From Gemmatimonadota bacterium (lineage in GTDB: Bacteria; Gemmatimonadota; Gemmatimonadetes; Gemmatimonadales; GWC2-71-9): a DNA stretch of 64,000 nucleotides. The stretch is from contig PNAE01000007.1 in the NCBI GenBank assembly GCA_003169895.1, forward strand, positions 1,717,978 to 1,781,977, read 5' to 3'. Below the pieces are notes generated by a model, which made no database searches, was not told the origin of the DNA, and saw nothing but the letters and a program-made list of their open reading frames with translations. The translations under genes and the position numbers were made by a program. Below are positions 2,410 through 56,582 of this stretch, piece after piece; positions within the stretch are counted from its first letter, which is position 1; each line of letters starts with the position of its first letter.

Positions 2410-3809
2410 GGGCGTACCACCGCCGGCTGCGATGCCGCCCCGGCCAACCGTGCCGCCCACACGGTGTCGCTGAGTCGATGCAGGTCCTCGCGCGGTAGCG
2501 TCTCCAGCAATTGCCAGCCAATCTCCAGTGTCTCGCCGATGGTGCGGCGCGCGTCGCCCTGTCCCACGAAATCGAGTTCGAACCGGTCGGCGAATGCCAG
2601 CGCCCGCCGATCCTCCGGTGCCAGGCCGGCTTCGCCGACGATGGCCGCCATCAAGCGGGCTTCGCGCCCCCGCGTGTACACGGCGTACAGCTGATTCGAC
2701 CACTCGCGGTGCTCGGCGGCGGTCTTTCCCGCGCCGATACCGGATTGCATCAGCCGCGACAACGATGGCAGGACGTCCACGGGCGGGAACACTCCGCGTC
2801 GGTGCAGGTCGCGCGACAGCACCACCTGGCCTTCAGTGATGTAGCCGGTGAGGTCGGGAATCGGATGCGTGATGTCGTCGTCGGGCATGGTCAGAATCGG
2901 GAGCTGGGTGACCGATCCAGGCTTGCCGGCGAGCACTCCGGCGCGTTCATAGATGCTCGCCAGGTCGGAATACATGTATCCGGGATAGCCGCGCCGCCCG
3001 GGAATCTCCTCCCGCGCGGTGGCGATTTCGCGCAGCGCTTCGCAGTAGTGAGTGAGGTCAGCGATCACCACCAGCACGTGCATGCCGAGGTCGAACGCGA
3101 GGTGTTCTGCTTGCGCCAGTGCGACCCGCGGCGCCAGCAGGCGCTCGATCGTGGGGTCACGCGTCTGGTTGATGTAGAGGACCGAGCGTTCGCGCGCTCC
3201 CGATCGATCGAATCGCTCGAGAAATGCATCGGTTTCACGCGACGTGATCCCGATGCCGACAAAGACGACCGCAAACGCTTCATCGCGCGGCGCGCGCGCC
3301 CCTTCGACGATTCGGGCGGCGAGGTCGAGACCCGGGAGGCCCGGGCCCGAGAACACCGGCAGCTTCTGGCCGCGCACCAGGGTGTTCATGCCGTCGATGG
3401 CGGATATGCCGGTTTCGATGAAATCGCCGGGTCGCGCGCGCCGCACGGGATTCAACGGTGCGCCCCACACCGACCGGGTCGCGTCGCCGACCGGCGGCGG
3501 CAGGCCATCAATCGGCAGGCCCATGCCGTTGAAGGCCCGGCCGAGGAGTTCGCGGCCGACGACCGCGGTGGCCTCTCGCCCGGTCAGAGTGATCTCGACC
3601 GCGGCCGGCGCCAGGCCGACCGTGTCCTCGAGCACCTGAATGACGCTGATGTCGCGGCCAGCGTCGATCACCTGACCGCGCCACGGGCTCTCACCCGGGA
3701 CGCGGATCTCGACCCACTCGCCGAGCGCCACTACTCGGGTGCGACGCAGGTACAGCAGCGGACCGCCGACGCCCTGCGCACCATGATGACGTCGGGCCAG
3801 CGCGCTCAC
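2406..3809 (-). CDS. atpB: V/A-type ATP synthase subunit B
   Basis: Non-catalytic nucleotide-binding subunit of the A3B3 head, 467 residues (family about 460-470). Family signatures seen include the N-terminal beta-barrel, the G-R-A-F-N-G-M-G-x-P-I-D-G segment, P-V-F-S-G-x-G-L-P at the position of the catalytic P-loop (the degenerate loop that defines B), and R-x-G-Y-P-G-Y-M-Y-S-D-L-A-x-x-Y-E-R-A-G. The GTG start overlaps the stop of subunit A as GTGA. Reading continues straight into subunit D. Confidence 0.95.
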   Translation of the reverse strand: MSALARRHHGAQGVGGPLLYLRRTRVVALGEWVEIRVPGESPWRGQVIDAGRDISVIQVLEDTVGLAPAAVEITLTGREATAVVGRELLGRAFNGMGLPIDGLPPPVGDATRSVWGAPLNPVRRARPGDFIETGISAIDGMNTLVRGQKLPVFSGPGLPGLDLAARIVEGARAPRDEAFAVVFVGIGITSRETDAFLERFDRSGARERSVLYINQTRDPTIERLLAPRVALAQAEHLAFDLGMHVLVVIADLTHYCEALREIATAREEIPGRRGYPGYMYSDLASIYERAGVLAGKPGSVTQLPILTMPDDDITHPIPDLTGYITEGQVVLSRDLHRRGVFPPVDVLPSLSRLMQSGIGAGKTAAEHREWSNQLYAVYTRGREARLMAAIVGEAGLAPEDRRALAFADRFELDFVGQGDARRTIGETLEIGWQLLETLPREDLHRLSDTVWAARLAGAASQPAVVRP

Positions 3810-5539
3810 CGCGCGACTCCCGCCAATGCTGCTCTGACCGCCGCGGCCCCGGCCGCAAGCTCACTGTCCGCAGCCCGGCGAAGGTCGGCGAGCAGCCGGC
3901 GCGGCACTGCCAGGTCGAGCTGATCGAACGCGGTTCCCCCGTCCAGGGCACGCTGGCCGGCAGCCAGGAGTTCGCGGCACAGCGTGGCGAGCAGCCAGGT
4001 CTTTTCGATCGACGACAGCGCATCGTTCGGGTCGTACGCGCTCTGGCCGAGTACCGTGTCGCGGACCACGCGCGCCACCTCGAGCAGCAGCCGATCGCCG
4101 TCCTGGAGCGCTTCGCTGCCCACGAGGGTCGCAATCTCGCGCAGCTCGCGGTCGCGTTGCAGCAACTCGAGCATGGCCCGGCGGAGTTGCAACCAGTCTC
4201 CGCCGGCACGTTCACTGAACCATGGCGCGGTGGCATCGGCGTACAGGCTGTAGCTGGTTTCCCAATCCACCGCGGGAAACTGCCGCTGGTGTGCGAGTTC
4301 CGGATCGAGCGCCCAGAGCGCGCCGACCACCCGCAGCGACGCCTGGGTGACCGGCTCCGAGAAATCGCCGCCGGGCGGCGAGATCGCGCTGATCACTGTC
4401 AGCGCACCATCGCGCTCGGGCGCGCCGCACGCGCGCACATGTCCGGCGCGCTCGTAGAACTTCCCCAGTCGATTCCCGAGGTAGGTCGGGTATCCCTCTT
4501 CGCCGGGCATCTCCTGCAGACGCGCGCCGATTTCTCGCAACGCTTCGGCCCAGCGCGACAAGCTGTCGGCCATGAGCGCCACGCGGTACCCCATGTCGCG
4601 ATAGTACTCCGCAATGGTCACGCCCACATACACGGACGCTTCACGCGCGGCCACCGGCATGTTGGAGGTGTTGACCAGCAGCACGGTGCGGTCCATCACC
4701 GAGCGGCCGGTGCGCTGATCCACGAGGCGTGGGAATTCCTCCAGAACCTCGGCCATCTCGTTGCCACGCTCGCCGCAACCGACATAGACAATGATGTCGG
4801 CCGCGGCGTACTTGGCAAGGGACTGCTCGATCACCGTTTTGCCGGTGCCGAACCCGCCGGGCACGGCGACGCTGCCGCCCTCGGCCACCGGGAACAACAG
4901 GTCGAACACCCGTTGTCCGGTAACCAGCGGCTGATGCAGCGCCAGGTGGCTGGCGACCGGCCTCGGTTGTCGCACCGGCCACGATTGCGCCAGCGTGAGC
5001 CCGGTGCCGTCTTCGAGTCGCCCGAACGGCTGCCACACGGTATACTCGCCGGCGGCAATGGCGGCGACCTGTCCAGTGACGCGTGGTGGCACCATCACAC
5101 GATGCACGAAGCCGGGTCGCTCGGTCACGGTGCCGAGCACGTCGCCGCCGCGCACGGGCGCACCGGACGCGATCACCGGCGTGAACGCCCATCGCCGGCC
5201 TGCGTCGAGCGTCGGCGCGGACGTGCCCGGAGCGATGAAGTCGCCGGTGGCATCCGCGACGCGCTGGAGCGGGCGGCCGATGCCGTCGAGCACCGAGCCG
5301 AGCAGGCCGGGGCCCAGCTCCACGGTGAGAGCGTTGCCGGTCGCGGCGAGCCGTTCGCCGACGCGCAGACCGGTGGTTTCCTCAAAGATCTGAACCGTGC
5401 CACGGTCGCCGGAGATACGCACCACTTCGCCGAGGAGACCGCGCTCGCCGACGCGCACCAATTCATACAACGCGGCATCCGCCAGGGGCTCTGCCTCGGC
5501 GAGGGCGCCGCTGATTCGCACCAGCCGTGCCGTGCTCAC
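3806..5539 (-). CDS. atpA: V/A-type ATP synthase catalytic subunit A
   Basis: Catalytic subunit, 577 residues. The Walker A loop G-G-F-G-T-G-K-T lies near residue 230, followed by V-Y-V-G-C-G-E-R-G-N-E-M, the Walker B hydrophobic strand with A-L-M-A-D-S-x-S-R-W, and the E-G-Y-P-x-Y-L box. The A-specific non-homologous region after the N-terminal barrel is present. The reading frame is open to 5620, but the GTG at 5539 forms a GTGA overlap with subunit F, the operon's habitual junction, and is followed by the conserved N-terminal barrel (V-R-I-S-G). The Walker residues are intact, so it should be active. Confidence 0.95.
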   Translation of the reverse strand: MSTARLVRISGALAEAEPLADAALYELVRVGERGLLGEVVRISGDRGTVQIFEETTGLRVGERLAATGNALTVELGPGLLGSVLDGIGRPLQRVADATGDFIAPGTSAPTLDAGRRWAFTPVIASGAPVRGGDVLGTVTERPGFVHRVMVPPRVTGQVAAIAAGEYTVWQPFGRLEDGTGLTLAQSWPVRQPRPVASHLALHQPLVTGQRVFDLLFPVAEGGSVAVPGGFGTGKTVIEQSLAKYAAADIIVYVGCGERGNEMAEVLEEFPRLVDQRTGRSVMDRTVLLVNTSNMPVAAREASVYVGVTIAEYYRDMGYRVALMADSLSRWAEALREIGARLQEMPGEEGYPTYLGNRLGKFYERAGHVRACGAPERDGALTVISAISPPGGDFSEPVTQASLRVVGALWALDPELAHQRQFPAVDWETSYSLYADATAPWFSERAGGDWLQLRRAMLELLQRDRELREIATLVGSEALQDGDRLLLEVARVVRDTVLGQSAYDPNDALSSIEKTWLLATLCRELLAAGQRALDGGTAFDQLDLAVPRRLLADLRRAADSELAAGAAAVRAALAGVAR

Positions 5540-47168: not shown

Positions 47169-47825
47169 CTAAAGCCTGAGACGCATGCCGTCCCAGCCGA
47201 CTCGGGCCCGAGCCCGGCGGGGATTATGGTAGAACCAGGATCCGAGGTGGACGACGAGGAATCTTGGGGTGAATTCGGCGAAGAAGGCGATTAGCTCTGG
47301 CAGGCCGGCGTGACCGAAGCGCTTGCCGGTTGTCGCGTTCTTTCGGACCAAGCCGCCGCGGCGAAGAAAGCTTCCCGCCGTAATGACTAGATCAAGATCG
47401 TGAAGCAATCGGTGATACCCCGGTCGAATGTCAATGAGGTCACCAGTGTAGAGCAGTGACTTCCCGCCCCGATCGACCCGATAGGCGAGCGAGCGGACGT
47501 GTTCGCTATGGGTTGCCGGCATTGCGGTGATACGCCAACCATCGAGGTGCAGGACTTGGCCAGGCTTGACCAGGATGGCGTGAGAACCAGGCGGAGTCTC
47601 CGGAGCATAGACAGGGGGCAGGCCGCTCGTTGGAGCCCGCACGAAGAAGGCGTGATCTGGATGCAGGTGGGTGATGAGAATCCAACGATGGCGGTAGCGG
47701 AGGAACCTCCGCTCCCCGATGTCCAGCATGAGCTCCCGATCGAGAAGCGCACCGGAATGGCTCGCGTGACGCTTGGCTGACAGCTGGATGTTTCCACGCG
47801 TGCCGAGGACATGGAGTTCCATCAT
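47169..47825 (-). CDS. Metallo-beta-lactamase-fold hydrolase
   Basis: 218 residues. The metal motif T-H-L-H-P-D-H-A-F-F (H-x-H-x-D-H) is intact at about residue 53. Other elements are A-T-H-S-E-H and G-D-L-I-D, supplying the third His/Asp ligands. It resembles RNase Z/UlaG-like stand-alone hydrolases, and the substrate is unknown. Tandem ATGs start the gene (47825 and 47822). Confidence 0.85.
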   Translation of the reverse strand: MMELHVLGTRGNIQLSAKRHASHSGALLDRELMLDIGERRFLRYRHRWILITHLHPDHAFFVRAPTSGLPPVYAPETPPGSHAILVKPGQVLHLDGWRITAMPATHSEHVRSLAYRVDRGGKSLLYTGDLIDIRPGYHRLLHDLDLVITAGSFLRRGGLVRKNATTGKRFGHAGLPELIAFFAEFTPRFLVVHLGSWFYHNPRRARARVGWDGMRLRL

Positions 47826-48653: not shown

Positions 48654-49100
48654 TTACACGACGGACACCAGCGCTTGCTCCGGGCGCACCCCCCAGCCTT
48701 CGTGTTGCTGCAGCCACTCCTCGTAGCTCCAGCCGTTCTGCAACATTTAGTAGAGATAGCAGCACAGCTTTCGCGCCGCCGCGACCGTGGCTTTCGCTTT
48801 CCCCTTGGAGCGCAACAACCTCTGATACTGCATCCCAATCGGTCCCGGCGCCAGCTTCAGCGTCTGCACGATCTCGATCAGCACCCACTTGAGCCAGGGA
48901 CTGCCCGCGCCATCGACGCCGCCGTGCGCCGTTTTGTCGCCCGAGCTCCGCGTGCTCGGCACCAGACCCGCATACGCTGCGAGCTGATGGCTCGACGCGA
49001 AGCGATCGATGCGGCCGATTTCGGCAAGCAGCAATGGCGCGCCAAAGGGACCAATCCCGGGGACCGTCTGCAGTCGCTCCGCCGCCGTGTCCCCCGCCAC
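48654..49100 (-). pseudogene. IS110-family transposase fragment, C-terminal, with in-frame stop
   Basis: The minus frame reads L-Q-T-V-P-G-I-G-P-F-G-A, Y-A-G-L-V-P, H-G-G-V-D-G-A-G and R-K-L-C-C-Y-L-Y, the Transposase_20 C-terminal domain of IS110. TAA (48747-48749) then interrupts the usual Y-W-M-L run, and the frame resumes as M-L-Q-N-G-W-S-Y-E-E-W-L to a stop at 48654. The N-terminal DEDD half is absent: the reading stops at the IS5 junction at about 49100. Confidence 0.85.
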
Positions 49101-49615
49101 CGATCATTGCGGCGCCGAGCTCGACGAAGAACGCGACCCAGACGCGCGATCCCGAGATGCGGCAGACGAAGAAGGGCAAGATGTGGCACTTCGGGATGAA
49201 GATCCACGTGGGCAGCGACCGGCGCGGCATCGTGCACACGGTGACGACAACCGACGCGGCGCAGGCGGACATCACGCAATTCCACGACCTGCTGCACGGC
49301 GCGGAGACGGCGGTGTACGGCGACAAAGCCTATTGGTGTGCCGAGGATCAGGCCGACTGCGAAGCCCAAGGAGTGAAGTTCCGCATCAATCGGCGCGGGC
49401 AGCGCACGCCGTATTGGGACGGGATCAACCGGGCGCGCTCGCGGGTGCGCGCCCACGTGGAGCATCCCTTTCATGTGGTCAAGCGGCTGTGGGGCTTCGC
49501 GAAGGTGCGGTACCGGGGTCTAGCCAAGAACACGACGCGCATCTTCGCGCTCTTTGCCTTGGCGAATCTCTACCGGCTGCGCCACCGACTTATGCCGAGC
49601 GCCGGGTCGGCGTGA
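49101..49615 (+). pseudogene. IS5-family transposase, C-terminal half
   Basis: The + frame reads I-I-A-A-P-S-S-T-K-N, then D-P-E-M-R-Q-T-K-K-G-K-M-W-H-F-G-M-K, V-Y-G-D-K-A-Y-W, and R-V-R-A-H-V-E-H-P-F with F-A-L-F-A-L-A-N-L. This is the DDE domain of an IS5 transposase. The normal D-A-T before I-I-A-A, which holds the first catalytic Asp, is lost at the junction with the IS110 fragment, so the enzyme is dead. 49616-49858 holds IS-flank sequence and CTAACGGCCTGCGCCGC, and I see no terminal inverted repeats. Confidence 0.88.
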
Positions 49616-49858
49616 GATCAGCCCCGGCGACGCGGTCCGCTACCCTGATTCGACGTCAGGCGACGGCGCCCTTGGCCACTGCGGAGCGATCACGCCAGCA
49701 CCACAACACTCGTGGGCCCGATTTTTCCACGCTGAGGAGCGTGCGAGTGACCTGTGCAGAGCTTCCCTAACGGCCTGCGCCGCTGCGCGCGGCGCGGATT
49801 GAAACGAAGCTAACGTTTCGCGTCCGGCAGCGTCTATTCCAGATATCCCGGAGAGCCC

Positions 49859-51019
49859 ATGTCCAGCTTGCAACGCAGCGCCGGTTCCATTCTGCTCCTC
49901 GCCTTCGTCGCCGGCCCGCTCACGGCACAGACCCCGACCGATGAGGCACGCGCCCACCTTGCCAAGGCGCGCTCCCTGGCCGGCAGTGAGTTCCTCACCA
50001 CCGAGGAGGTCCAGTGCAACGAACTCGGTGGCGACGACCCGTACCGCATGACGGCCAAGGACGAGCACGCTACCCCCACGCAAGTATTCGACAACGTGTA
50101 CTACATCGGCAGCAAGTCGCTGGGTGCGTGGGCAGTCAGGACCTCCGAGGGGATCATTCTCATCAATGCGATGCATACCAGGTCCGTCGAGTCCACGCTG
50201 CTGCCGGGACTGCACAAGCTCGGGCTCGACCCGGCGCAGGTAAAGTACGTCATCGTGACACAGGCTCAGGGTGATGACTTCGGCGGCGCGCGATATTTCC
50301 AGGACAAATACGCCGCGCAGGTGATCATGTCATCGGCCGACTGGAACGCCCTCTCCCGAACCACCGCTACGCGTACCCCGCGCGGCGCGCCCCGCGGGGA
50401 TACTCTCGGCGGCGGCAGCAGACGCGGTGGTGGTGGCGGCGGTGGTAGCGGCGGCGGTGGCCGGGGTGGATTTGGCGGCGGCCGGGGCGGGTTTGGCGGC
50501 GGCCGCGGTGGCGGCGGCTTTGGTCGTGGCGGATCAGCAGGCGGCAATCGCGGTGGCAACAGCCAATCCGAGCCGGTCGACGACATGCCGCAACACGACC
50601 AGGTGGCCGTGGACGGCCAGACGTTTGCGCTCGGAGATGAGACCGTGACGGTGCTGCTGACGCCGGGACACACCCCGGGCACGTTGTCGGTGATTGTTCC
50701 CGTTACCGATCACGGTGAGCCGCATGTTGCGGTCGTGCTTGGCGGCACCGCGATCCCTCGGTCGAGCGACATGAAGAACGCCTACATCACGTCCGCACAG
50801 CACCTGGCCGCCGCGGGCGCGACCGCCCACGTAGACGCCGAACTGAATGGATATCCCTTCGTGGATAACGGCATCGCACGGATGGACAGTCTTCGGCGTG
50901 CCCGCACGCGCGTCGCCAACCCATTCGTCATCGGCGGCGACGGCTTCCAGCGCTACATGGGTGTCATTGGCGAATGCGGCTGGGTCAGCCTGCTGGGGCC
51001 GACCCGCGATCCGGATTGA
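49859..51019 (+). CDS. Secreted MBL-fold protein with substituted metal ligands and a Gly-rich insert
   Basis: 386 residues with a signal peptide (S-I-L-L-L-A-F-V-A-G-P-L-T-A-Q). The scaffold is that of subclass B3-like MBL proteins (V-F-D-N-V-Y-Y-I-G, then V-I-V-T-Q-A-Q-G-D-D-F-G-G and L-L-T-P-G-H-T-P-G). The H-x-H-x-D-H motif is Q135-A-Q137-G-D-D, so three His ligands are replaced; His271 in P-G-H-T is kept. Residues about 181-240 are a Gly/Arg-rich insert coded by repeated GGTGGC-type codons. It is unlikely to be a zinc hydrolase and could be a binding protein. Confidence 0.82.
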   Translation: MSSLQRSAGSILLLAFVAGPLTAQTPTDEARAHLAKARSLAGSEFLTTEEVQCNELGGDDPYRMTAKDEHATPTQVFDNVYYIGSKSLGAWAVRTSEGIILINAMHTRSVESTLLPGLHKLGLDPAQVKYVIVTQAQGDDFGGARYFQDKYAAQVIMSSADWNALSRTTATRTPRGAPRGDTLGGGSRRGGGGGGGSGGGGRGGFGGGRGGFGGGRGGGGFGRGGSAGGNRGGNSQSEPVDDMPQHDQVAVDGQTFALGDETVTVLLTPGHTPGTLSVIVPVTDHGEPHVAVVLGGTAIPRSSDMKNAYITSAQHLAAAGATAHVDAELNGYPFVDNGIARMDSLRRARTRVANPFVIGGDGFQRYMGVIGECGWVSLLGPTRDPD

Positions 51020-51969: not shown

Positions 51970-52272
51970 GTGCGTCGCAAGCAACTGCATCAACTCGTCG
52001 ATCGCCACCGGCGTCAGAGTGCGCGGGTCGAACGCGATTCGGTGCCGCGCGCCCCTTACCGCCGCCAGCCCAAGCCAGTATTGTCATCGCAACCAGCGAC
52101 CGTGTGCCCGCTTCCGCGGCGAGCGTCCACCGGACACATGGCGAGTCACCGTGACGTCGTCGGTCATCAATGCGGCGGCCGCGACATTCTCGCGCAGCGC
52201 GCCATGCGCGAGGAGGCTGTGTCCCGCATCGTCCGGCGCTACCAGAAATGGGCGGCGATCTTCGAGCGGCAA
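51970..52272 (-). pseudogene. Candidate interrupted ORF of unknown function
   Basis: The minus frame runs from about 52272: L-E-D-R-R-P-F-L-V-A-P-D-D-A-G-H-S-L-L-A, ending R-A-H-G-R-W-L-R, then TGA (near 52084), then Q-Y-W-L-G-L-A-A-V-R and A-F-D-P-R-T-L-T-P-V to a TAG at about 51970. Both halves look coding in composition. A TGG to TGA change could explain it. No family recognised. It ends 5 bases before the phosphoglucomutase start. The rest of 51816-52277 is empty apart from the repeat at 51861. Confidence 0.3.
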
Positions 52273-52277
52273 CAGCC

Positions 52278-53945
52278 ATGAAGATCAATCCCCTCGCGGG
52301 CCATCCGGCTCCGCCGGCGATGCTGCTCGATGTCGCCAAGCTGGTCACGGCTTACTACACCGAGATCCCCGACCCCGCAGTGTCCGCGCAGCGAGTTGCC
52401 TTCGGCACCTCGGGCCACCGCGGCTCGGCGTTCGACACGACCTTCAACGAGTGGCACGTGTTCGCCATCAGCGAGGCCATCTGTCGCTTCCGGCAGCGGC
52501 AGGGTATTGACGGTCCGCTCTTTCTCGGCATCGACACGCACGCGCTGTCGGCGCCTGCCTGCGCCACCGCCCTCGAGGTGCTGGCGGCAAACGGCGTTGA
52601 CGTCATGCTTGCCGAGCACGACGAATACACGCCAACGCCCGCGGTGTCCCACGCCATCCTCTGCTACAACCGCGGACGTATCACGGGGCTGGCCGACGGC
52701 ATTGTGGTCACGCCGTCCCACAATCCGCCGGACAACGGAGGGTTGAAGTACAACCCGCCCAATGGGGGGCCAGCGGACACCGACGTCACCAGGTGGATCG
52801 AAGCCCAGGCCAATGAATTCTTGGAGCGCGGGCTCAAGGGTGTGAAGCGCATCCCATACCAGAAGGCGTTGCGCGCCGGCACGACGCATCGGCACGACTA
52901 TCTCAACGCCTATGTACGCGATCTGGGCAACGTCGTCGACATGGATGCGATCCGCGGCGGGGACATTCATCTGGGCGTGGATCCGCTCGGTGGGGCCGGC
53001 GTCCATTACTGGGCTCCCATCGCTGAGCGCTACCATCTCAACCTGACGGTCGTAAGCGACGTGGTCGATGAGACGTTCCGGTTCATGGCCGTGGATTGGG
53101 ACGGCCGCATCCGGATGGATCCGTCATCGTCCTATGCGATGCAGCGGCTCATCGGCCTGAAGGACCGGTTCGACGTCGCCGTCGCGTGCGATACCGACCA
53201 CGATCGTCACGGGGTCGTCACCCGGAGCACGGGGCTCTTGCCGCCCAATCACTATCTCACGGTCGCGGTCCATCACCTCTTCTCACATCGGTCGCAGTGG
53301 CGCCCGGACGCCGGGGTGGGGAAGACGGTGGTGAGCAGCAGCATGATTGATCGCGTGAGCGCCAAGCTCGGCCGACGGCTCCACGAGGTGCCGGTCGGCT
53401 TCAAGTGGTTCGTCCAGGGCCTCGGCGATGGTTCCCTCGGGTTCTGCGGCGAAGAGAGTGCTGGGGCGGCATTCCTGCGCCGCGACGGGACGGCGTGGAC
53501 GACGGATAAGGATGGCATCATCCCGGGGTTGCTCGCGGCCGAGATCACGGCGCGGGCGGGCCGTGACCCGGGGGAGATCTACGCGGGGTTGACGCGTGAA
53601 TTCGGTGAGCCGGTCTACGATCGGGTCGAGGCGCCCGCGACCGCCGAACAGAAGAAGCGACTGGCGGCGCTCTCGCCGCAGCACGTGCAATGCGTCGAAC
53701 TGGCTGGGGAGAAGGTGCAGAGCATCATCAGTGAAGCCCCCGGTAACCACGCGCCGATCGGCGGCGTGAAGGTCGCTGCCGCGACCGGCTGGTTCGCCGC
53801 TCGGCCGTCGGGCACCGAAGATATCTATAAGATTTACGCCGAGAGTTTCCGGGGAAAGGAACACCTGGACCGAATCGTGGCGGAGGCGCAGGCGATTGTC
53901 GATAAGGCGCTCGCTTCGGAGCCGCGGGGCGCCGCACACGGATGA
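52278..53945 (+). CDS. pgm: Phosphoglucomutase (alpha-D-glucose phosphate-specific)
   Basis: 555 residues. It interconverts glucose-1-phosphate and glucose-6-phosphate. The active-site Ser lies in T-P-S-H-N-P-P, the metal loop is D-T-D-H-D-R-H-G, the sugar-binding loop contains G-E-E-S-A-G, and the phosphate-binding R-P-S-G-T-E-D closes it. The length matches E. coli Pgm (546). It is the first gene of a three-gene operon with zwf and ackA, linking glycogen to G6P. Confidence 0.95.
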
Positions 53946-53976
53946 TGAATCCGTTCGTTCACACGGAGAGCGTCAG

Positions 53977-55389
53977 ATGGGCAAGATGAATAACCACCCG
54001 GCGCCGTCGGATGCGCTGGTGCTGTTCGGTGTAACGGGTGACCTCGCCCACAAGATGATTTTCCCCGCCCTCTACGCAATGGTCAAACGGGGTGTCCTTA
54101 CCGTCCCCGTCGTCGGAGTCGCATCCACGCCATGGAGCGTGGCGCAACTTCGCGAGCGGGCGACCGACAGCATCAGGCGGTCGGGCGCCGTCGTGGAGCG
54201 GCGTACGCTCAGCCGCCTCTTGTCCCTCCTTCGATATGTGTCGGGAGACTACAACAACGCGGAGACCTTCGCGGCGCTCAAGCATGCATTGGGGAAGGCG
54301 CGACGCCCCGCGCACTACCTCGCCATCCCCCCCGCGCTCTTCGCGACGGTGATCAAGGGGCTGGCGGCCGCCGGGCTGGCGGACCAGGCGCGCGTCATCG
54401 TCGAAAAACCATTCGGACGTGATCTGGCCTCCGCGCGCCGGCTCAACAGCGTTGCGCGAGCGGTGTTCCCCGAAGACGCGATCTTCCGGATCGACCATTT
54501 CCTGGGGAAGGAGGCGATCATGAACATCCTCTACTTCCGCTTTGCCAATTCCTTCCTCGAGCCGATCTGGAACCGCAACTACGTCGCGAGCGTCCAGATC
54601 ACGCTGGCCGAGAAGTTTGGAGTGAACGGCCGCGGCGCGTTCTATGAAACGGCGGGCTGCCTGCGGGACGTGGTCCAGAACCATCTGTTCCAGATCGTCG
54701 CGTTGCTGGCGATGGAACCGCCTGCGTATCGGGGCTACGGAGCCGTCCACAGCGAGAAGGCCAAGGTCTTCGAAGCCATGCGGCCGCTCACGCGGCGCGA
54801 TCTGGTGCGCGGTCAATACATTGGCTATCGGAACGAACGGGACGTCGCGAGGACCTCCGACGTCGAGACATTCTGCGCGATGCGACTCTTCGTCGACTCA
54901 TGGCGGTGGGATGGGGTGCCATGGTACCTGCGTTCCGGAAAGTGCCTCCCTGAAACGGCGGCCGAGGTGCTGGTCGAGCTGAAGCCGCCGCCCGCCAGGC
55001 TGTTCGCCGACTCGGCTCCGCCGGCCGGCCAGGCGAACTACCTGCGCTTCCGACTCTCACCGGACACGGCGGTCGCTCTGGCCGCCCGCGTCAAGCACCC
55101 GGGCAAGGAGTTCGTCGGAGATCAACGGGAGCTCTACATGATAGAGGAGCTTCTGGGGGCGGAAGCCCCCTACGAGCGCCTGCTGAGCGATGCCATGATC
55201 GGGGATGGGGCGCTCTTCACTCGAGAGGACGCGGTCGAGGCCGCGTGGGTCGTGGTCGACCCGGTTCTCAAGCGGCATCCCCGGGCTCTCCCGTACAAAC
55301 GCGGCAGCTGGGGGCCCCGACAGGCCGACACGCTCATTGCGGCGCCCAGCGGCTGGCATAACCCCACGCAAGGTCGGACGACCGCGTGA
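53977..55389 (+). CDS. zwf: Glucose-6-phosphate 1-dehydrogenase
   Basis: 470 residues. The NADP fold has [10 protein letters not shown] (family G-A-S-G-D-L-A-x-x-K), then E-K-P-F-G-R-D-L and the catalytic R-I-D-H-F-L-G-K-E. The C-terminal domain has R-S-G-K. It oxidises G6P to 6-phosphogluconolactone, giving NADPH. The start at 53977 follows GGAGAG; the frame open to 53896 is inside pgm. The gene for 6-phosphogluconolactonase is not in the window. Confidence 0.95.
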
Positions 55390-56582
55390 CCACGCCATCC
55401 ATCCTGACGATCAACGGCGGCTCGTCGAGCATCCGGTTTGCGGTGTATGAGGCAGGCGAAACGCCGCGGCGACGGCTCGACGGGAGGATCGATCGCATCG
55501 GCTTGAGTGGCACGAATTTTATCGTCAACAATCCAGCTGGAGAATCGCAGGCTCCCCGTCACCTTGTCGCCGCCAATCACCGCACAGCGGTGGGTTTTCT
55601 GCTGGACTGGCTTGAGGCGCAACCCGTCTTTGCGTCAGTCAAGGCCGTGGGACACCGCGTGGTGCATGGCATGAAGCATTCCGAGCCGGAGCGGGTCACG
55701 CCCAAGCTCCTCGCGGAACTGCACCGCATCACGCCGTACGCCCCCGACCACCTGCCACGTGAAATCGGGTTGATCGAGGCGTTCAGGCAGCGGCATCCAA
55801 AGCTGCCCCAGGTGATGTGCTTTGACACCGCCTTTCACCGCACCATGCCCCGGGTCGCGAAATTACTGCCGATCCCGCGTCGCTTTGCGGCAAAGGGCGT
55901 CGAGCGCTACGGTTTTCACGGCCTCTCCTACACCTATTTGATGGAGGAACTTGGCCGCCTCGATCCGGCAGCCACGCAGGGCCGTGTGATCCTCGCCCAC
56001 CTCGGCAACGGCGCCAGCCTGGCCGCTGTGCGCCACGGCAAGAGCATCGACACCAGCATGGGCTTCACACCCACGGCAGGATTGGTGATGAGCACCCGCA
56101 CGGGAGACCTGGATCCCGGCCTGGTTTACTACCTGGCGCGCACCGAGCACACGACTGCCGCGCGATTTCAACAGATGGTGAATCATGAATCCGGGCTGCT
56201 TGGCGTTTCGGAGACCAGCTCTGACATGCGGGACCTGCTCGCGCGGGAAGCCCACGACGTGCGGGCGGCGGAAGCCATTGCACTGTTCTGCTATCAGTCG
56301 AAAAAGTGGATCGGCTCGTTCACCGCGGTGCTCGGCGGATTGGACACGCTCGTTTTCGCCGGTGGCATCGGGGAAAACGCGCCGCGTGTCCGCGCGCGTA
56401 TCTGTGAGGGGCTGAGCTTCCTCGGCATTGAACTTGATCAGAAGCGTAATGCGAAGAATGCACCTCTGATTTCTCCGGACACCGGTCGCACCAGGGTACG
56501 AGTCATCCGCACCGACGAGGAGCTCATGATCGCGAGATCCGTCACCCGCGTCCTCCATCTCGGCTCACATCGGGACACGTAG
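55386..56582 (+). CDS. ackA: Acetate kinase
   Basis: 398 residues. It converts acetyl phosphate + ADP to acetate + ATP. Visible motifs: N-G-G-S-S-S (phosphate 1), [14 protein letters not shown] (catalytic), [16 protein letters not shown] and G-G-I-G-E-N. The GTG start overlaps the zwf stop as GTGA. No phosphotransacetylase or phosphoketolase is adjacent, so the acetyl phosphate source is unknown. Confidence 0.96.

What the first reader, a model, noticed from the sequence alone, without database searches (positions are those of the whole stretch)
49859..51019. Secreted MBL-fold protein whose zinc ligands are Gln and Asp
The H-x-H-x-D-H signature is Q-A-Q-G-D-D in an otherwise well-kept scaffold, and a 60-residue Gly/Arg-rich insert separates this loop from P-G-H-T-P-G. 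Keeping the fold while changing three ligands argues for a new function rather than decay.
Basis: partly seen in the sequence, partly recalled or inferred. Interest (0 to 1): 0.55.

Follow-up and report, generated by a model that had tools for sequence, protein, structure and literature searches.

The report
Secreted metallo-beta-lactamase lookalike lacking zinc site
This gene makes a secreted protein shaped like an antibiotic-cutting metallo-beta-lactamase but with most of its zinc-holding residues gone, and since two relatives have lost them in different ways while the rest of the protein stays conserved, it is probably a maintained non-enzyme rather than a dying gene.

Summary
Of six ligands Asp139 and His271 remain. 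Two of the nine other genomes of the genus hold orthologues; the three form one clade (100/99) and all carry the Gly-rich insert. The homologue sharing Q-x-Q-x-D-D was not found: ligand sets are QQH/DDY here, QDH/DEY in G007, QEY/DHT in G002. Ligand columns vary like average ones (2 of 6 against 149 of 289 invariant). Pairwise dN/dS within the clade is 0.13-0.28, with dS near saturation, so the protein looks maintained, not decaying. Best reading: a secreted B3-like pseudoenzyme that gave up zinc hydrolysis and kept the scaffold for binding. 'Zinc ligands are Gln and Asp' is unsupported. The B3 ligand variants in the papers seen (B3-Q, B3-E, B3-RQK) do not cover it; INTS9 and PqsE are precedents for MBL folds that work by binding. 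Function is untested.

The parts
49850..49855 (+). possible ribosome-binding site GGAGAG
   Evidence: read directly from the sequence
49859..51019 (+). B3-like MBL-fold gene, 386 aa, zinc ligands degenerate
   Evidence: fold
49859..49930 (+). signal-peptide-like N-terminus, residues 1-24 (..LTAQ)
   Evidence: by eye; no signal-peptide program was run
49931..50065 (+). N-terminal extension with helix 28-45 and Cys53; Cys53 and Cys373 are Cys in 9 of 9 aligned rows, so a disulfide is possible (inference)
50165..50167 (+). Asn103, where six of six ligand-intact relatives have Asp; Asn in all three orthologues
50261..50278 (+). QAQGDD, residues 135-140, in place of H-x-H-x-D-H
50375..50569 (+). 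Gly/Arg/Phe-rich insert, residues 173-237, low model confidence, imperfect tandem repeats; a similar insert in both orthologues
50669..50671 (+). His271, kept equivalent of the His196 ligand (His in G007, Tyr in G002)
50852..50854 (+). Tyr332 in place of the His263 ligand (Tyr in G007, Thr in G002)

Best explanation
A secreted subclass-B3-like MBL pseudoenzyme. Shown by sequence and model: it belongs to a family most of whose members keep the zinc ligands; its small clade changed most of them, differently in each of three orthologues; sequence and predicted fold stayed under purifying selection. Inferred: it no longer holds a catalytic zinc pair and does not hydrolyse. It works by binding, most likely using the old pocket and the long flexible Gly/Arg-rich loop to hold a small molecule or a partner protein in the periplasm or outside the cell. 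The parent family may be catabolic hydrolases, since some relatives sit beside uptake and oxidation genes, so a leftover ability to bind that kind of substrate is the activity I think most likely.
For: B3 fold: PF00753 over cut-off; the 25 best NCBIfam models shown are 23 B3-type models, one class-B core domain model and one 'HARLDQ, not B3' model, all under their cut-offs; model Z 28.3, 2.7 A over 250 residues to BJP-1. Ligand change: 17 of 21 rows outside the clade keep H-x-H-x-D-H, the three clade members do not; the six ligand columns are invariant in six ligand-intact relatives but 2 of 6 in the clade, where 149 of 289 columns are. One clade, 100/99. Clade dN/dS 0.13-0.28. The window and G007 genes differ at 34% of aligned bases; neutral change at 15% or 20% of sites in one lineage left 47 and 12 of 2000 frames open. 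Parent context: three of four annotated plasmid regions lie beside TonB receptor, MFS and oxidoreductase genes (the fourth, does not). Precedent that an MBL fold can act by binding with catalysis separable: PqsE (PMC12077149, passages).
Against: Q135 and D139 are shared by all three, and every motif substitution (Q, Q/D/E, D, D/E/H) is a residue that can hold metal, so some metal binding is possible. B3-RQK enzymes with three changed ligands have beta-lactamase activity when truncated (PMC7381538, passages). dS is near saturation (the C-terminal half of window against G007 is fully saturated) and window against the ligand-intact G065 gives dN/dS 0.60, also rough. Only three orthologues are known, one split over two contigs. 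No conserved neighbour gene was seen. Very similar Gly-rich tracts in unrelated frames weaken the idea that the insert is a purpose-made binding arm.
Confidence: 0.65

Rival explanations
1. A re-tuned metalloprotein: the His-rich zinc site became an oxygen-ligand site (Gln/Asp/Glu) for a harder metal such as Mg, Mn or Ca, and the protein still catalyses or is metal-stabilised.
For: The four motif positions in the three orthologues carry only Q, D, E or H; Q135 and D139 are invariant; clade-invariant His106, His285 and His324 are absent from the six ligand-intact rows.
Against: Positions 137, 140, 271 and 332 differ between orthologues, and 271/332 are Tyr/Thr in G002. Gln, Asp and Tyr are single-base neighbours of His in the code, so polar replacements are partly expected. 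No coordinates were available to test whether the new His residues reach the pocket.
Confidence: 0.17
2. A low-activity B3-like enzyme with weakened zinc affinity, as reported for B3-RQK proteins, still hydrolysing its substrate with one or two loosely held zinc ions.
For: B3-RQK proteins have three changed ligands yet show activity once truncated (PMC7381538, passages); HARLDQ proteins are among the best structural matches.
Against: B3-RQK has one fixed motif and appears to have arisen once; here the motif is not fixed. Four of six ligands are changed here, and H271 is lost too in G002.
Confidence: 0.1
3. A decaying gene beside insertion-sequence remnants, with a broken active site and no function.
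For: Short transposase frames lie just upstream (48747-49615); the gene is patchy, 3 of 10 genomes of the genus.
Against: No internal stop in three divergent orthologues and clade dN/dS 0.13-0.28; 33 clade-invariant residues absent from all six ligand-intact rows.
Confidence: 0.08

Closest known systems
Subclass B3 metallo-beta-lactamases (BJP-1, FEZ-1, CAR family)
   Same: Fold, PGHTPG loop, apparent secretion; BJP-1 is the best structural match, the CAR model the best NCBIfam match
   Different: Four of six zinc ligands changed, about 65-residue Gly-rich insert, scores far under the B3 cut-offs shown
B3-Q variants (GOB, LRA-12; QHH/DHH)
   Same: Gln at position 116
   Different: B3-Q keeps the other five ligands (PMC10318434, passages); here 118, 121 and 263 are changed too
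B3-RQK / HARLDQ proteins (SPR-1, CSR-1; HRH/DQK)
   Same: Several ligands changed in a kept fold, with weak metal binding reported (PMC7381538, passages)
   Different: One fixed motif; ours is different (QQH/DDY) and not fixed among orthologues
INTS9 / CPSF100 (eukaryotic MBL pseudoenzymes)
   Same: INTS9 is called a pseudoenzyme unable to coordinate the catalytic ions, with two large loops inserted in the MBL fold (PMC7980224, passages)
   Different: beta-CASP subunits of eukaryotic RNA-processing complexes (recalled in part); ours is a secreted bacterial B3-like protein with no known partner
PqsE (bacterial MBL-fold regulator)
   Same: An MBL fold whose partner binding is separable from catalysis: an inactive variant still binds RhlR (PMC12077149, passages)
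   Different: PqsE keeps its HxHxDH site in all its orthologues and is cytoplasmic (the latter recalled); ours has lost the site

Membership tests
Metallo-beta-lactamase fold superfamily | Profile match and alpha-beta-beta-alpha fold | tested here: met
   PF00753 30.7 bits against cut-off 22.7; B3 MBLs at the top of Foldseek and VIA-align
Subclass B3 metallo-beta-lactamase | NF033105 score of at least 240 bits | tested here: not met
   102.8 bits; ligand-intact relatives L026 (132.1) and L036 (136.3) also fail it
Subclass B3 metallo-beta-lactamase | H116 H118 H196 / D120 H121 H263 | tested here: not met
   Q Q H / D D Y
Subclass B3 metallo-beta-lactamase | Hydrolyses beta-lactams with zinc | not testable with these tools
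   needs purified protein
B3-Q variant | QHH/DHH ligand set | tested here: not met
   118, 121 and 263 differ; set as given in PMC10318434
B3-E variant | EHH/DHH ligand set | tested here: not met
   116, 118, 121 and 263 differ
B3-RQK variant | HRH/DQK ligand set | tested here: not met
   116, 118, 121 and 263 differ; set as given in PMC10318434
CAR family B3 | NF000469 score of at least 500 bits | tested here: not met
   107.1 bits; Kosakonia L024 passes with 514.9
MBL pseudoenzyme | Catalytic metal ligands lost in a selected, folded protein | tested here: met
   by sequence and model only
MBL pseudoenzyme | No metal bound and no hydrolysis | not testable with these tools
   needs metal analysis and assays

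The most novel reading that the evidence does not exclude
A B3 MBL scaffold converted into a secreted binding protein, or into an oxygen-ligand (Mg/Mn/Ca) protein, with the Gly/Arg-rich loop grown beside the pocket as its new recognition arm: a bacterial, secreted counterpart to INTS9-type MBL pseudoenzymes.
Probability: 0.2. Interest if true: 0.62.

Novelty: new variant of a known kind. Interest (0 to 1): 0.42.

Why it matters
The papers seen describe four B3 ligand sets and treat them as enzymes (passages). A selected B3-like lineage without a usable zinc site would show that this resistance-associated fold can be kept in bacteria for something other than zinc hydrolysis, and it warns that naming by fold will call such proteins metallo-hydrolases. 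Two ligand-divergent orthologues make the idea directly testable.

Tried and rejected
Looked for a homologue with the same Q-x-Q-x-D-D; none was seen among matches from relatives (61 genomes), genus (10), family (102), class (119 with the L026 protein as query; 198), phylum (200), order (181; these sets overlap, and class, order and phylum are samples), genome contigs (4 loci) and plasmids (18 records, of which 6 were fetched and read). The motif of G260 was not read, nor those of the other 12 plasmid records. Of 13 family genomes with a match, four hold a true homologue (G000, G002, G007, G065); eight match mainly the Gly-rich tract by the aligned ranges, and G118 matches a different, ligand-intact B3-like protein.

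Conserved neighbours: none seen between window, G007 and G002 by the first residues of their frames (no search was run on them). Literature: 'metallo-beta-lactamase' with 'pseudoenzyme' and 'metal ligands' gave 0 papers; 'MBL fold' with 'pseudoenzyme' gave 1; a looser search gave 10 listed papers, with PqsE among them and no B3 case by title. Searches were seen as listings only; led to PMC10740994, of which passages were read. I claim absence from print only for these searches in this library.

Could not place His106, His285 and His324 relative to the pocket: model coordinates were not in the box. Left out of the tree: the truncated L055 row, L064 (not extracted) and L041 (frame broken by a stop); several further B3-like hits and duplicate loci were not put into. 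The model used eight sequences and has mean pLDDT 70.6.

Full report
WHAT IS THERE. The ORF at 49859-51019(+) encodes 386 residues. A GGAGAG lies three bases before the ATG and residues 1-24 look like a signal peptide (by eye). Pfam gives Lactamase_B above its cut-off. The best NCBIfam models are nearly all subclass B3 MBL models, far under their cut-offs (CAR family 107.1 of 500 bits, B3 equivalog 102.8 of 240). phmmer against solved structures puts BJP-1 first and FEZ-1 next; the printed alignments set Q135, Q137, D139, D140 and H271 against ligands 116, 118, 120, 121 and 196, and the BJP-1 one (5wcm) sets Tyr332 against His263 (the BBL numbers are recalled, the ligand sets read in passages of PMC10318434). 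The AlphaFold2 model from eight sequences has mean pLDDT 70.6, the MBL elements in order, and residues 173-237 under 50. Foldseek and VIA-align put B3 enzymes and B3-like proteins throughout the top ranks (BJP-1 Z 28.3, 2.7 A over 250 residues).

LIGANDS. In the HHH/DHH notation the window reads QQH/DDY. In addition residue 103, Asp in six of six ligand-intact relatives, is Asn in all three members of the clade.

RELATIVES. Of ten held genomes of the genus, two besides the window's carry orthologues: G007 (68% identical over 385 codons) and G002 (61% and 57% in two pieces at the ends of two contigs, parted at the Gly-rich insert). Among 102 genomes of the GTDB family one further true homologue appears, G065, and it is ligand-intact. 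Class, phylum and order searches (198, 200 and 181 genomes, overlapping) found matches in 10, 9 and 4 genomes including the window's own; those outside the clade whose motif I read, all but G260, keep H-x-H-x-D-H. Of 21 rows outside the clade in one alignment, 17 keep it; the four that do not are two Desulfopila proteins and a duplicated Vicinamibacteria pair (E-A-H-E-I-H). On a maximum-likelihood tree of 24 rows the three orthologues form one group (100/99). Its nearest group, less sure (93/94, itself 86/69), is the four Desulfopila rows, two intact and two partly degenerate; the next group of seven is intact. Ligand loss in the window clade is therefore probably derived, but a partial loss shared with the two Desulfopila proteins is not excluded; those lost other positions, keeping H116 and H263.

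NOT A FIXED NEW SITE, NOT DECAY. The orthologues read QQH/DDY, QDH/DEY and QEY/DHT. Among 289 compared columns 149 are invariant in the three; of the six ligand columns two are (Q135, D139). Two or fewer of six has probability 0.31 by chance, so these columns look no more constrained than average; with only six columns the test is weak. In six ligand-intact relatives they are 6 of 6 invariant, where 61 of 289 columns are. Clade dN/dS is 0.13 (window-G007), 0.22 and 0.24 (window with the two G002 pieces), 0.28 and 0.20 (G007 with them); dS is 1.4-2.0, and the C-terminal half of window-G007 is saturated, so these are rough. Window against ligand-intact G065 gives 0.60 and G065-G208 0.29. Window and G007 differ at 34% of aligned bases; neutral change in one lineage at 15, 20 and 30% of sites left 47, 12 and 0 of 2000 frames open.

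THE INSERT. About 65 residues rich in Gly, Arg and Phe replace a short linker between the two halves. All three orthologues have it; the aligned relatives lack it at that place, though L052 has a Gly-rich stretch nearer its N-terminus. In DNA it is an imperfect repeat of 12, 15 and 21 bases. Very similar GGFGGGRGG tracts occur in other open frames of the same GTDB family, so it may be a common low-complexity expansion rather than something special to this protein. That it lies beside the pocket is recalled from B3 structures, not measured.

CONTEXT. Upstream lie short IS110-type and DDE transposase frames; downstream a VIT1-family gene on the other strand, then phosphoglucomutase, G6PDH and acetate kinase genes. 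The orthologues have different neighbours. The window genome has no B3 protein above the NF033105 cut-off, whereas 4 of 10 genus genomes do, G007 among them. Six plasmid relatives of 18 records were read: all six keep H-x-H-x-D-H, but in two (L092, L093) the downstream ligands could not be aligned. Of the four with annotation, three sit beside TonB receptor, MFS transporter and oxidoreductase genes and one does not; this hints at catabolic hydrolysis in the parent family (inference).

MECHANISM AND NOVELTY. Shown: fold by model, changed ligands, clade, selection. Inferred: no zinc pair, no hydrolysis, function by binding. Known B3 ligand variants are B3-Q, B3-E and B3-RQK (PMC10318434 and PMC7381538, passages only); none matches. 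INTS9 is a documented MBL pseudoenzyme with inserted loops (PMC7980224, passages), and in PqsE partner binding is separable from catalysis though its site is kept (PMC12077149, passages). The window protein may work like these but is not a member of either family. I rate it a new variant of a known kind.

Noticed in passing
L021:6733-7971 and L022:4803-5981 (Desulfopila aestuarii): Related MBL-fold proteins with a different partial loss: the second motif His is missing (one with a short insertion) and PGHT is replaced by PRS; L021 also holds a tandem-domain protein with both motifs intact.
   Followed up: partly
L023:1820-2800 and 3043-4023 (Vicinamibacteria MAG): Two very similar B3-like genes in tandem with motif E-A-H-E-I-H, so that the motif Asp is Ile.
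   Followed up: no
L027:1363-2073, L029:1060-2088, L031:1144-1815 and other loci: Very similar GGFGGGRGG tracts in other open frames of the same GTDB family; L027 and L031 begin like secreted proteins with DLSGxW.
   Followed up: partly
window 48747-49615: Short, overlapping IS110-type (-) and DDE (+) transposase frames directly upstream of the gene.
   Followed up: partly
window 47169-47825 (-): A second MBL-fold protein (Lactamase_B_2) with an intact H-x-H-x-D-H motif about 2 kb away.
   Followed up: no
window 52170-56579: Phosphoglucomutase, glucose-6-phosphate dehydrogenase and acetate kinase genes in a row.
   Followed up: no
L053:1246-2424 (G007, contig C6): G007 carries a ligand-intact B3 protein above the B3 cut-off as well as the degenerate orthologue.
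   Followed up: no
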